Assembly (NCBI GenBank): GCA_017473085.1
Contig: JAFUNF010000013.1
Coordinates: 1 to 55,543 of the forward strand
DNA: 55,543 bases
Direction of reading: 5' to 3'
Source of the DNA: Clostridia bacterium
Lineage (GTDB): Bacteria > Bacillota > Clostridia > Oscillospirales > CAG-272
This document shows, piece by piece, positions 20,039 through 35,695 of the stretch (position 1 is its first letter; each line of letters starts with the position of its first letter). The notes beneath the pieces were generated by a model. That model did no database searches, was not told the DNA's origin, and saw nothing but the letters and a program-made list of their open reading frames with translations. The position numbers were made by a program, and so were the translations under genes.

Positions 20039-20113
20039 TGGTGACCCGTACGGGAATCGAACCCATGTTTCAGCCTTGAGAGGGCCGTGTCTTAGCCGCT
20101 TGACCAACGGGCC
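20039..20113 (-). tRNA. tRNA-Glu (anticodon CTC)
   Basis: 75 nt including encoded CCA (20039-20041). Acceptor stem GGCCCGT/ACGGGTC, D-loop GGTCAAGCGGCTAAGAC, anticodon loop CCTCTCAAG giving CTC, T-arm GGGTTCGATTCCC. The body is nearly identical to Bacillus tRNA-Glu, which usually has TTC; this isoacceptor reads GAG. Confidence 0.93.
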
Positions 20114-20289: not shown

Positions 20290-20528
20290 GCCGTAAAAAC
20301 ACAAGGACAAAGAGGAGTAGTAGCAAGATAGCCTCAAAGAGAGTCGGGGATGGTGGAAGCCGATGGGTAAGGTGCTATGAAGTAGCTTTCGAGTGGTGGT
20401 GGCGAAATAGCTGTAGTCATCAACGGACCCTTCCGTTAAAGAGGTTAGAGTGTGCACCTTCGTGCAAATTCAGGTGGTACCACGCATACTTGCGTCCTGA
20501 TGCGATTTGTCGCATCAGGACTTTTTTT
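20290..20528 (+). promoter_or_regulatory. T-box riboswitch leader of valS
   Basis: A T-box leader controlling valS by uncharged tRNA-Val. The conserved antiterminator T-box AGGTGGTACCACGC lies at 20472-20485. The competing terminator is GTCCTGATGCGA/TCGCATCAGGAC (20494-20505 with 20510-20521) plus seven T. In the large Stem I region the valine specifier is most likely GTC at 20416-20418, followed by A; GTA at 20413 is an alternative. When tRNA-Val is charged, the terminator forms. Confidence 0.93.
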
Positions 20529-32767: not shown

Positions 32768-34879
32768 TTATTTTGCATCCTTCATAGAGAAGTCAGGACG
32801 GCCCTTCTTGTCAAGGCCAAGGTACTTAACTTTTACCTCGTCACCAATCTTGCATACGTCCTCAACCTTTTCAGTTCTGCCATTTGCAAGCTTAGAAATG
32901 TGAACCATAGCCTCCTTGCCAGGAGCGATTTCAACGAATGCGCCGAATTCAGCAATTCTTGTAACTACGCCTGAGTAGGTAGCACCAACCTCTGGCTCAA
33001 AGATAATACCTGCAATAGTAGCACGTGCAGCCTCAATTGCGTTCTTATCAATAGCAGAGATGAATACACTTCCGTCGTCCTCAATGTCAATTTTAGCACC
33101 TGTATCAGCGATAATCTTTTGAATTACCTTACCACCTGTACCGATAACCTCACGAATCTTGTCAGTAGGAACCTTCATTGAAAGCATCTTAGGAGCATAC
33201 TCAGAAACCTCTTTTCTTGCCTCTGGAATAGCCTTAAGGATTACCTTGTCAATGATTTCGTCACGACCCTTGTGTGTTTGCTCAAGAGCACGCTTAATAA
33301 TTTCAGGTGTTAGACCATCAATCTTAAGGTCCATTTGGATAGATGTAATACCCTTGTGAGTACCGGCTACCTTGAAGTCCATATCGCCATAGAAGTCCTC
33401 AAGACCTTGAATGTCAATCATTGTATCCCAGCTTCCGTCCTCTGCTGTGATAAGACCACAGGAGATACCTGCAACAGGAGCCTTAATTGGAACACCAGCA
33501 TCCATAAGAGCAAGAGTAGAGCCACAAACTGAAGCCTGTGATGTTGAGCCGTTAGAGGAAATAACCTCGGAAACAAGACGAATTGCGTATGGGAATTCCT
33601 CAACAGAAGGAAGAACAGGAACAAGTGATCTCTCGGCAAGAGCACCGTGACCGATTTCACGTCTGCCAGGAGTTCTGGAAGCCTTAGCCTCACCTGTTGA
33701 GTAGCCAGGCATATTGTAGTGATGCATATATCTCTTTTCAGTTTCCTCATCGATGCCGTCAAGCATTTGAGCATCAGAGATAGGACCAAGTGTTGCAAGA
33801 GTCATAACCTGAGTCTGACCACGTGTAAACATACCACTACCATGAACTCTCTTGAATAGACCAACCTCAGCGGTAAGAGGTCTAATATCATTCATACCAC
33901 GACCATCAACACGCTTCTTGTCCTCAAGTAGCCATCTTCTAACAATCTTCTTTTGAATCTTGTAGATAAGCTCTTCCATTCTAACGCCAATATCAGCATA
34001 CTTTCCTTCGAATGTAGCTAAAATGTCAGACTTAATAGGTTGCATCTTAGCGTCACGAGCAGTCTTGTCATCTGTGTCAAGAGCCTCCATAACAGCCTTT
34101 TCACAGTAAGCAAATACCTCGTCAAACATATCGTGATCAAAATCGCTAGACTCATAGCTAAACTTTGGCTTACCAATCTCAGCAACGATACCATTGATAA
34201 ACTTAATAAGCTTCTTGATTTCCTCATGTGCAAGCATAATTGCGTTGAACATATCCTCATCGGATACTTCCTTAGCGCCAGCCTCAATCATAACAACCTT
34301 GCTTTCGGAAGCAGCAACAGTAAGCTCAAGAACGCTCTTAGCTCTTTGCTCAAGAGTTGGGTTGATAATAATTTTACCGTCAACCATACCCATAAACAAG
34401 CCGCCAATAGGACCATTCCATGGAATGTCGGAGATGGAAAGAGCAACGGATGCACCAATCATGGCAGTAATTTCAGGTGAGCAATCGTAGTCAACTGAAA
34501 GAACAGTTAGAGAAAGGTTAACGTCATTTCTTAAATCCTTAGGGAAGAGAGGTCTTACAGGACGGTCAATAACACGACCAGTAAGAACAGCCTTTTCAGA
34601 TGGCTTACCCTCACGCTTTAGGTAACCACCAGGAATTTTACCAACAGAATACATTCTTTCCTCATAGTCAACAGACAAAGGCAAGAAGTCAATGCCCTCA
34701 CGTGGTGCTGCAGATGCAGTAGCACAAGCGAGTACAACAGTCTCGCCGTAACGTACCAAAACGCTACCATTAGCAAGACCAGCCATTTTTCCACTTTCGA
34801 TTACAAGCTTACGACCAGCAAGCTCATATTCATAAACCTTGTAATTGTCAAAGGTTTTTTCGGTGAACATTTCACTCAT
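32768..34879 (-). CDS. pnp: Polyribonucleotide nucleotidyltransferase (PNPase)
   Basis: 703 residues with the start at 34879 after GGAGG (34890-34894); the frame extends 18 codons upstream without a site. It degrades RNA 3' to 5' with phosphate. Two RNase PH domains (first SGKMAGLANGSVLVRYGETVVL, second MTLATLGPISDAQ with GRREIGHGALAERSL) are followed by a KH domain (VIGTGGKVIQKIIADTGAKI) and a C-terminal S1 domain (YSGVVTRIAEFGAFVEIAPGKE). The mRNA leader contains a long inverted repeat and lies next to structured 123-bp repeats, separating it from rpsO, its usual operon partner. Confidence 0.97.
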   Translation of the reverse strand: MSEMFTEKTFDNYKVYEYELAGRKLVIESGKMAGLANGSVLVRYGETVVLACATASAAPREGIDFLPLSVDYEERMYSVGKIPGGYLKREGKPSEKAVLTGRVIDRPVRPLFPKDLRNDVNLSLTVLSVDYDCSPEITAMIGASVALSISDIPWNGPIGGLFMGMVDGKIIINPTLEQRAKSVLELTVAASESKVVMIEAGAKEVSDEDMFNAIMLAHEEIKKLIKFINGIVAEIGKPKFSYESSDFDHDMFDEVFAYCEKAVMEALDTDDKTARDAKMQPIKSDILATFEGKYADIGVRMEELIYKIQKKIVRRWLLEDKKRVDGRGMNDIRPLTAEVGLFKRVHGSGMFTRGQTQVMTLATLGPISDAQMLDGIDEETEKRYMHHYNMPGYSTGEAKASRTPGRREIGHGALAERSLVPVLPSVEEFPYAIRLVSEVISSNGSTSQASVCGSTLALMDAGVPIKAPVAGISCGLITAEDGSWDTMIDIQGLEDFYGDMDFKVAGTHKGITSIQMDLKIDGLTPEIIKRALEQTHKGRDEIIDKVILKAIPEARKEVSEYAPKMLSMKVPTDKIREVIGTGGKVIQKIIADTGAKIDIEDDGSVFISAIDKNAIEAARATIAGIIFEPEVGATYSGVVTRIAEFGAFVEIAPGKEAMVHISKLANGRTEKVEDVCKIGDEVKVKYLGLDKKGRPDFSMKDAK

Positions 34880-34917
34880 TTTTTTGTTTCCTCCGTAAAA
34901 TAGAAATTTAAACTTTT

Positions 34918-34995
34918 GTGAGGGACATAGCATTTAACTAAAAACTAAATACGAAAAGAGAGTGTTTAGCCCTTAGTTAATTGCTATCTCCTCAC
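34918..34995. repeat. Long imperfect inverted repeat in the pnp leader
   Basis: Arms ~34 bp: GTGAGG/CCTCAC, ATAGCA/TGCTAT, TTAACTAA/TTAGTTAA and CTAAA/TTTAG pair in order with small internal mismatches, around a ~10-nt loop. It lies ~25 bp upstream of the pnp ribosome site and abuts the tandem repeats. Confidence 0.75.
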
Positions 34996-35004
34996 TTGAA
35001 GCTT

Positions 35005-35330
35005 GATAAGCTACGAACTTCCTCGTTGCTCCTCGACAGTGACCTCAATGTACGAGAAGTACATTATCGCCCCCTGTCTGTGGTGCGCCTTGAATTTCTT
35101 TCTTCTAAAGCTTCAACTCAAAGCCCTGATAAGCTACGAACCTCCTCGTTGCTCCTCGATAGCGACCTCGACGTACGAAAGGTACGCCCTCGCCCTCTGT
35201 CTGTGGTGCGCCTTGAATTTCTTGCTTCTAAAGCTTCAACTCAAAGCCCTGATAAGCTACGAACCTCCTCGTTGCTCCTCGACAGTGACACGAAAGCACG
35301 TCCAGAAATTCTCGCTTCAATGCTTCACAA
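35005..35330. repeat. Tandem 123-bp repeats with covarying hairpin
   Basis: Units start at 35005, 35128 and 35251 with GATAAGCTACGAAC; the first two are full 123-bp copies, ~90% identical, and the third is internally shortened. Each unit holds a small hairpin on the minus strand whose stem differs between copies by compensating changes: AATGTAC/GTACATT in copy 1, GGCGTAC/GTACGTC in copy 2. It fills the ~470-bp gap between rpsO and pnp. No coding function is supported. Confidence 0.85.
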
Positions 35331-35361
35331 ACCAATGAACCTTCAAAAGAGAAGGGTGCAA

Positions 35362-35396
35362 AAAGAAAACAATGGCTGTGCAGTTTTGCACAGCCA
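35362..35396 (-). terminator. Terminator of rpsO
   Basis: Nine-bp perfect stem GGCTGTGCA/TGCACAGCC (35374-35382 with 35387-35395), 4-nt loop; the minus strand continues ATTGTTTTCTTTTT. Confidence 0.8.
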
Positions 35397-35440: not shown

Positions 35441-35695
35441 TTACTTTCTTAAGCCAAGCTTTTCAACGATAGCACGATAACGGTTGATATCGATCTTAGC
35501 AAGGTAGTTAAGAAGGTTTCTTCTGTGACCTACCATTTTAAGAAGCCCTCTTCTTGAGTGGTGGTCATTTGCATTGTTCTTAAGATGCTCGTTAAGATTG
35601 TTGATACGGCTTGTAAGAAGTGCGATTTGTACCTCTGGTGAGCCTGTGTCACCCTCGTGAGCAGCATAAGCCTTAATGATTTCCTGCTTGTTCAT
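35441..35695 (-). CDS. rpsO: 30S ribosomal protein S15
   Basis: 84 residues, slightly shorter than the usual 88-89. It has the S15 core [25 protein letters not shown] and [21 protein letters not shown], which bind 16S rRNA helices 20-22. GAGGTG precedes the ATG. It normally forms an operon with pnp; here a terminator and tandem repeats intervene. It probably represses its own translation through the leader RNA. Confidence 0.96.

What the first reader, a model, noticed from the sequence alone, without database searches (positions are those of the whole stretch)
35005..35330. 123-bp tandem repeats between rpsO and pnp carry a covarying RNA hairpin
Three units start at exact 123-bp intervals (35005, 35128, 35251). 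In the orientation of rpsO/pnp each holds a hairpin whose arms differ between copies with compensation: AATGTAC/GTACATT in copy 1, GGCGTAC/GTACGTC (with a G-U) in copy 2, and a six-pair GACGTG/CGTGTC version in shortened copy 3. An outer GACAG/CTGTC pairing is also visible in copy 1. Compensating change between tandem copies argues for selection on structure, in a gap that separates an otherwise almost universal gene pair. The family is unknown to me: it could be an RNA element, a nuclease-resistant spacer or a mobile repeat.
Basis: seen in the sequence. Interest (0 to 1): 0.75.

Follow-up and report, generated by a model that had tools for sequence, protein, structure and literature searches.

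The report
Mobile rod-shaped repeats aligned with replication
The repeats between two bacterial genes are local copies of a widespread, apparently unnamed family of mobile DNA repeats of about 130 bases, whose one strand folds into a conserved rod and which nearly always point against the direction in which the chromosome is copied.

Summary
In detail: two full copies and one broken copy at 123-bp spacing, with compensating arm changes. The hairpin is only the tip of a ~130-nt rod with seven paired segments and conserved internal loops. The rod is a dispersed repeat family, not an rpsO-pnp element: 21 of 23 genomes of the genus, up to 116-150 scored copies in Selenomonadales MAGs, 49 of 398 genomes sampled from the phylum. 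The structure covaries strongly, on the strand where wobbles are G-U rather than A-C. Rfam has no match. In one complete genome the copies carry terminal inverted repeats and 5-bp target duplications, so the family is MITE-like; no transposase was identified. Three regularities stand out. The 3' end lies on the stop codon of an antisense gene (61 of 68 arrays). The rod points against the regional leading-strand direction (70 of 79; 64 of 64 with clear skew). In tandem arrays the 3'-most copy is best preserved (42 of 43). The window array is a lineage-specific insertion beside a conserved pnp leader hairpin. What mobilises it, and what the fold does, remain open.

The parts
34992..35121 (-). 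rod copy 1 (3'-most, best preserved), with outer stem
   Evidence: family model R1, 126.6 bits, E 1.6e-36; repeat unit 35004-35126
35115..35244 (-). rod copy 2, tandem, 123 bp upstream of copy 1
   Evidence: R1, 117.6 bits, E 1.4e-33
35238..35332 (-). rod copy 3, decayed (part of the 5' half missing)
   Evidence: R1, 22.3 bits, E 0.017; 51 nt at 88% to copy 1
   Evidence: sequence; apical helix paired in 97.5% of cells over 46 copies
34918..34995 (-). pnp leader hairpin, conserved in the genus, on whose base copy 1 abuts; not part of the repeat family
   Evidence: present by eye in 14 of 14 printed rpsO-pnp gaps and in the G005 flank
35357..35395 (-). rpsO terminator-like hairpin and T-run, upstream of the array
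   Evidence: sequence; hairpin in the fold; similar hairpins in the other gaps by eye
35441..35695 (-). rpsO, 84 aa
   Evidence: ORF; homologues in 24 of 28 genomes
32768..34879 (-). pnp (start read by eye behind GGAGG)
   Evidence: ORF 32768-34933, sequence

Best explanation
The array is a local cluster of a non-autonomous, MITE-like interspersed repeat ('rod'). SHOWN: about 130 nt; one strand folds into a long imperfect rod with covarying stems and conserved internal loops; dispersed through this genus and many other Bacillota; in one genome flanked by terminal inverted repeats and 5-bp target duplications; oriented against the regional leading-strand direction; best-preserved copy at the 3' end of each array, usually on a stop codon. 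INFERRED: the rods arrive by transposition into gene-end spacers with a transposase supplied in trans. They persist mainly in the orientation in which the more stable, folded strand has the polarity of the nascent lagging strand, because in the other orientation the hairpin would form on the lagging-strand template and be deleted by slippage. In the kept orientation a hairpin on the nascent strand favours re-copying, hence tandem arrays. At rpsO-pnp the rods are passengers between the rpsO terminator and the pnp leader hairpin. That the core is itself recognised as a folded single strand (DNA or RNA) is likely from its loop conservation across classes, but not shown.
For: Family and structure; strand. 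Spread. Mobility: G170, 13 rod elements with both ends found, 11 with an exact 5-bp duplication and 2 with 4 of 5; empty asnS sites of 9-20 nt (5 loci) against 8 of 17 asnS loci with a rod on the stop codon. Orientation: 70 of 79 arrays, 64 of 64 with |skew| >= 0.02 (64 of 65 with rounded values); conditional on local gene direction, Fisher p 4e-6 (skew) or 4e-5 (other genes); G170 12 of 15 rods; SL1-B47 42 of 50 against the gene majority. Array polarity: 42 of 43, and 15 of 16 in the three genomes with full lists. The one rod-less 50-bp remnant in G170 lies in the unfavoured orientation, as the deletion idea predicts (n=1).
Against: In the genus most of the GC skew follows coding direction; a symmetric estimate that removes this agrees for only 45 of 62 arrays. 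In SL1-B47 the rods lie on the G-rich strand (44 of 50), the opposite skew sign, although still against the gene majority. Array polarity is not explained by slippage alone; it fits new insertions at the gene-proximal end, or selection on that copy. No autonomous partner was found: Y1_Tnp and IS1182 models do not track the rods and half-element searches found no large copy. Terminal sequences and target duplications differ between lineages. Orthologous sites in several species are counted as separate arrays.
Confidence: 0.6

Rival explanations
1. A cis-acting structured RNA in the rpsO-pnp transcript (leader, processing site or stability element) that controls pnp or separates the two genes.
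For: In the window the folded strand is the transcribed strand of rpsO and pnp; rods or weak rod-like matches occur in 6 of 16 same-genus rpsO loci, all in the direction of rpsO.
Against: Full rods in only 2 of 16; the conserved structured feature of the gap is the separate hairpin 34918-34995; copies elsewhere sit beside unrelated genes and mostly antisense to them (68 of 79 arrays).
Confidence: 0.04
2. REP-like repeats made and moved by a REP-associated tyrosine transposase (RAYT).
For: Structured single strand, 3' gene ends, high copy number; a RAYT-like gene lies about 90 nt from a three-copy array behind infB in G008.
Against: G006 and G015 have Y1_Tnp genes but no rods, while G016, G022, G041, G042 and G044 have rods but no Y1_Tnp match; none of the other 20 Y1_Tnp loci checked had a rod within about 1.5 kb; short GTAG-hairpin repeats seen in the same gaps are better RAYT partners (recalled feature); 5-bp target duplications in G170 point to a double-strand mechanism.
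Confidence: 0.07
3. A functional polar chromosome element (as KOPS or Chi are), kept in one orientation because replication or segregation reads it.
For: Orientation follows the region even against the local genes; best copy kept at one position.
Against: Two of 23 genus genomes have none and several have 1-3; near-identical recent copies with target duplications in G170; 3 of 15 rods there break the rule.
Confidence: 0.1
4. An RNA-level element: the folded strand is transcribed and acts as a structured RNA, for example as an antisense insulator at gene ends or as an RNA needed for transposition.
For: G-U is the commonest type at one pair (49 of 95) and near-invariant at another (94 of 96); conserved internal loops; tandem-G.A-type columns.
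Against: In most loci the folded strand is antisense to both neighbours, so it would need its own promoter; none was looked for systematically and the 5' flanks look unconserved by eye. G.T and G.A pairs also form in DNA.
Confidence: 0.17

Closest known systems
MITEs, incl. enterobacterial RU-1 (127 bp, also called ERIC; that link is recalled)
   Same: Short, non-coding, intergenic, dispersed imperfect palindromes; terminal inverted repeats and target duplications in G170. RU-1 as 127-bp small mobile sequence: abstract in the search listing of PMC2759123.
   Different: Covarying internal-loop rod shared across Clostridia, Negativicutes and Thalassolituus; strict regional orientation; polar tandem arrays.
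REP/BIME repeats with RAYT transposases
   Same: Hairpins at gene ends, many copies, RAYT genes in some of the genomes; general description from the listing of PMC2817692.
   Different: About 130 nt with several conserved internal loops instead of a short hairpin; presence does not track RAYT genes.
BOX and RUP repeats of Streptococcus pneumoniae (PMC3049150, listing only)
   Same: Small interspersed repeats in a Gram-positive chromosome.
   Different: No sequence or structure comparison was made here.
IS1202-family and IS1182-family insertion sequences as possible mobilisers
   Same: IS1202 family: 24-26 bp imperfect inverted repeats, target duplications of 3-5 or over 15 bp, fixed orientation (passages read in PMC10132070), as the two duplication classes seen here; IS1182: variable duplications (recalled).
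   Different: Rod termini in G170 do not start with TGT as IS1202 ends do; IS1182-like elements of G170 have other ends; no IS1182 match in the eight genus genomes searched.

Membership tests
MITE (non-autonomous transposon derivative) | short, non-coding, dispersed copies in one genome | tested here: met
   11 matches in own genome, 30 and 32 in G016 and G022, 50 in 399.5 kb of SL1-B47
MITE (non-autonomous transposon derivative) | terminal inverted repeats and short target-site duplication | tested here: met
   in G170: TIR GTGCGTGTTCAAAAAG / rc GAGGATGTTCAAAAAG, exact 5-bp duplication in 11 of 13 rods, 4 of 5 bases in 2. Not established for the window's own genus
MITE (non-autonomous transposon derivative) | autonomous element with the same ends | tested here: not met
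   30 TIR matches in G170, no paired ends around a transposase; half-element search in 3.1 Mb of loci found none beyond about 400 bp apart. Only one genome and partial sequence examined
REP/RAYT system | RAYT gene in genomes that carry the repeats, flanked by them | tested here: not met
   1 adjacency (G008); 5 of the 12 genomes searched have rods but no Y1_Tnp match, and G006 and G015 the reverse
any Rfam 15 RNA family | match at or above gathering score | tested here: not met
   window, one Thalassolituus copy, one Selenomonadales copy
IS1182-mobilised element | IS1182 transposase with matching ends in the same genome | tested here: not met
   NF033551 in 8 of 19 genomes, 0 of 8 of the genus; ends of one five-copy G170 element differ; other G170 copies not compared
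IS1202-mobilised element | IS1202-family transposase in the same genome | not tested
integron attC site | R boxes (RYYYAAC/GTTRRRY, recalled) and an integron integrase | not tested
   considered because the folded strand is antisense to the abutting gene; no such boxes noticed by eye; integrase not searched
cis-regulatory RNA of pnp | conserved presence upstream of pnp | tested here: not met
   full rods in 2 of 16 same-genus rpsO loci, truncated in 1, weak in 3

The most novel reading that the evidence does not exclude
A class of selfish element that lives at the replication fork: a strand-specific folded rod, its loops conserved across classes, that spreads with interchangeable ends, is propagated as a nascent-lagging-strand hairpin, and grows polar arrays by adding new copies at the stop-codon end.
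Probability: 0.22. Interest if true: 0.87.

Novelty: new variant of a known kind. Interest (0 to 1): 0.68.

Why it matters
A repeat family with hundreds of copies per genome in some bacteria, absent from Rfam, shows covariation as strong as a classical structured RNA while behaving as mobile DNA. Its orientation and array polarity give a natural record of how replication sorts hairpin-forming DNA, a question usually studied with engineered repeats. It also warns that compensating changes between tandem copies do not by themselves show a local regulatory function.

Tried and rejected
A leader or spacer RNA specific to rpsO-pnp (rejected). Coding repeat: 123 is a multiple of 3 and a 163-aa plus-strand ORF crosses the array, but unit spacing varies elsewhere and stems covary. 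RAYT/REP and IS1182 as mobilisers: not supported. An autonomous large element: not found by half-models or terminal pattern. A simple replication reading of GC skew was weakened by the symmetric-skew control (45 of 62) and by the opposite skew sign in SL1-B47. Orientation set only by selection against sense copies in mRNA: disfavoured by the conditional test. Long direct repeats flanking rods: 4 of 76 in the mixed set A4 are whole terminator hairpins of 17-28 bp (0 of 380 shuffled pairs above 10), but in the genus only 2 of 69 exceed 9, and those two are a nested repeat and a GCATTCCGC-type repeat. Chance level of the genome contigs pattern scan was estimated by hand at about 20 hits, so single hits in distant taxa were kept only if the model scored them; Rhabdobacter, Dechloromonas, Alicyclobacillus and Shinella loci gave no match, nor did the two viral loci. 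DBS1-1 had none. Paper searches found no description of this family; only listings were seen, except passages of PMC10132070. Unanswered: why termini differ between lineages.

Full report
What is in the window. On the minus strand, in the direction of rpsO and pnp, 34992-35332 holds two complete and one broken copy of a repeat with 123-bp spacing. Upstream is the rpsO terminator-like hairpin (35357-35395); downstream, flush with copy 1, is a hairpin (34918-34995) that is present in all 14 rpsO-pnp gaps I could print (two of 16 loci were not parsed there).

The family. A blastn-type search found the repeat in 20 of 38 genomes, all of one genus. Iterated nhmmer on 36 loci gave 95 hits, 71 distinct. 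Forty-six copies with flanks were aligned. In the structure I named, 89.1% of cells are standard pairs, 32 of 36 pairs show a double change, and the covariation score is 0.561 against 0.210 in shuffles (0 of 500 as high) and at most 0.146 when partners are slid. Two larger sets, aligned to the models and so leaning towards the structure, give 0.660 against 0.213 (97 genus copies) and 0.360 against 0.135 (50 copies of one Selenomonadales MAG; its lower outer-middle stem is weak, 58%). Covariation includes a pair inside the conserved loop, GGCGY/RCAAC, which is C-G in 29 and U-A in 17 of 46 copies. Columns 56.82 are G.A in 46 of 46, and 57.81 are A.G 33, A.A 5, C.A 4, U.A 3, A.U 1, which looks like a sheared tandem pair (interpretation mine).

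Which strand folds. Over the named pairs G-U outnumbers A-C 137 to 37, or 91 to 37 without one invariant G-U; in the larger sets 274 to 56 and 49 to 18. The modelled strand is more stable than its complement in 82 of 93 genus and 34 of 47 GC-rich copies as RNA, and in 86 of 93 and 40 of 47 as DNA. So the folded strand is identified, but not whether it folds as RNA or single-stranded DNA.

Spread. The model finds 21 of 23 genomes of the genus and one weak match among 15 others of the order. Counts with the broader model, at most 150 candidates scored per genome: 150, 133 and 116 in three Selenomonadales MAGs, 42, 24, 20, 18, 12, 11, 5 and 4 in others, 0 in one; 50 copies in 399.5 kb of one MAG, chosen from contigs with hits. 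In the phylum 49 of 398 genomes and 40 of 267 genera match at 1e-5, with only 8 candidates scored each. E-values are rough. Rfam gave nothing relevant.

Mobility. In G170, a complete genome, eight copies (six with identical cores) lie in unrelated surroundings. Their ends are GTGCGTGTTCAAAAAG and the inverse of GAGGATGTTCAAAAAG. Of 13 rod elements with both ends found, 11 have an exact 5-bp duplication, AT-rich, and 2 match in 4 of 5 bases. One 50-bp element has the ends and a duplication but no rod. At asnS in the genus, 5 of 17 loci have only 9-20 nt between asnS and the next start (L326, L329-L332), and 8 of 17 have a rod directly on the asnS stop codon. In G347 three of six rods are flanked on both sides by copies of a whole terminator hairpin (L407, L408, L410, by eye), as are four of 76 in set A4. 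Termini and duplications therefore differ between lineages while the core is shared.

Position. A codon-based gene caller of my own (a limitation) was run on 60 regions that hold 79 arrays from 16 genomes of the genus. In 68 the gene at the 3' side is antisense; in 61 of these its stop codon lies within 17 nt inside the model end, while the 5' side is open (median 182 nt in the anti/anti class). Eleven lie in the same direction as both neighbours, and none lies between divergent genes. In GC-rich distant loci 31 of 65 hits abut in the same way. The window is one of the eleven exceptions.

Orientation. The rod strand has negative regional skew in 70 of 79 arrays, and in 64 of 64 with |skew| at least 0.02 (64 of 65 when one borderline value is rounded). 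It opposes the majority of the other genes in 68 of 79. Given local gene direction the regional effect remains: rods antisense to both neighbours are at majority sites 47 of 52 times, rods in line with both neighbours only 2 of 11 by skew or 3 of 11 by gene count (Fisher p 4e-6 and 4e-5). All nine in-line arrays with clear skew, the window included, follow the region and not their neighbours. Against this: genus skew is mostly coding skew, and a symmetric estimate agrees in 45 of 62 arrays only; orthologous sites are not independent; in SL1-B47 the rods oppose the gene majority in 42 of 50 but lie on the G-rich strand in 44 of 50. In G170, where skew and gene direction agree, 12 of 15 rods follow the rule; the exceptions are at 2.09, 2.91 and 3.26 Mb (positions; skews; rods).

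Array polarity. Taking scores from the listings, the 3'-most copy scores best in 42 of 43 arrays (P 1.6e-14 if position were random). The listing is cut at 150 rows; in the three genomes with full lists it is 15 of 16. Counting only the inner stems, 16 of 20 arrays favour the 3' copy, 3 tie and 1, at a contig edge, does not.

Mechanism. The best reading has two layers. The first is a MITE-like element moved by a transposase not identified here. The second is sorting by replication: a stable hairpin on the lagging template tends to be deleted and one on the nascent strand expanded, as described for CTG/CAG repeats (my recall; PMC3310812 seen in a listing only). This predicts the orientation, the tandem arrays and perhaps the rod-less remnant. 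It does not by itself explain the best copy being at the stop codon, which fits repeated insertion at that end or selection on that copy. The loop conservation across classes suggests that something recognises the folded strand.

Candidates for the mobiliser. A RAYT-like gene lies beside one array in G008, but across genomes Y1_Tnp genes and rods do not go together. IS1182 models are absent from the eight genus genomes searched, and one G170 element has other ends. IS1202-family duplications of 3-5 and over 15 bp (PMC10132070, passages) resemble the two classes seen here; this was not tested.

Verdict. A real, strongly structured, widespread repeat family, apparently not described in Rfam or in the papers my searches reached; ordinary in being a small mobile repeat, unusual in the covarying core, the regional orientation and the polar arrays. 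At rpsO-pnp it is most likely a passenger.

Noticed in passing
window 34918-34995 (minus strand): pnp leader hairpin with conserved arms (GATAGCARTTAAC... / ...GTTAARTGCTAT) and variable loop in 14 of 14 printed gaps of the genus; possibly a processing or autoregulation site like that of E. coli pnp (recalled).
   Followed up: partly
L217, L219, L220 (pnp leaders of G001, G013, G010): A diverged rod-like repeat (22-26 bits) between leader hairpin and pnp, with AAGGCGGAGCGAG...CGAGCGAGAACGCAG loops.
   Followed up: partly
L013, L003, L034, L325: A second small palindromic repeat (GCGAACCCCC...GGGGTTC type) nested in or beside rods.
   Followed up: no
L317, L318, L320 (asnS spacers): Short GTAG-plus-hairpin repeats (e.g. 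GTAGGGGCGAACATTGTTCGTCCG), REP-like, in the same spacers.
   Followed up: no
L310 3912-4424 (G008), L311, L312, L313: RAYT-like Y1 transposase genes; the G008 one is beside a rod array behind infB.
   Followed up: partly
L401-L404 (G257): Weak rod-like matches in the 16S-23S spacer of four rRNA operons; homology uncertain.
   Followed up: no
L433, L436 (G170): Rods of 230 and 209 bp with a 55-75 nt insert in the middle stem; matches of similar length occur in SL1-B47.
   Followed up: no
L135, L156, L107, L136, L407, L408, L410: Rods flanked on both sides by copies of a whole terminator hairpin, suggesting hairpin-targeted insertion with duplication of the hairpin.
   Followed up: partly
L147 (Thalassolituus maritimus): Two rods, each with a tRNA-like sequence directly at its 3' end (read by eye; Rfam confirms a tRNA next to the rod in L096).
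   Followed up: no
window 20042-20113 and 20295-20502: tRNA (minus) and T-box leader (plus) by Rfam.
   Followed up: no
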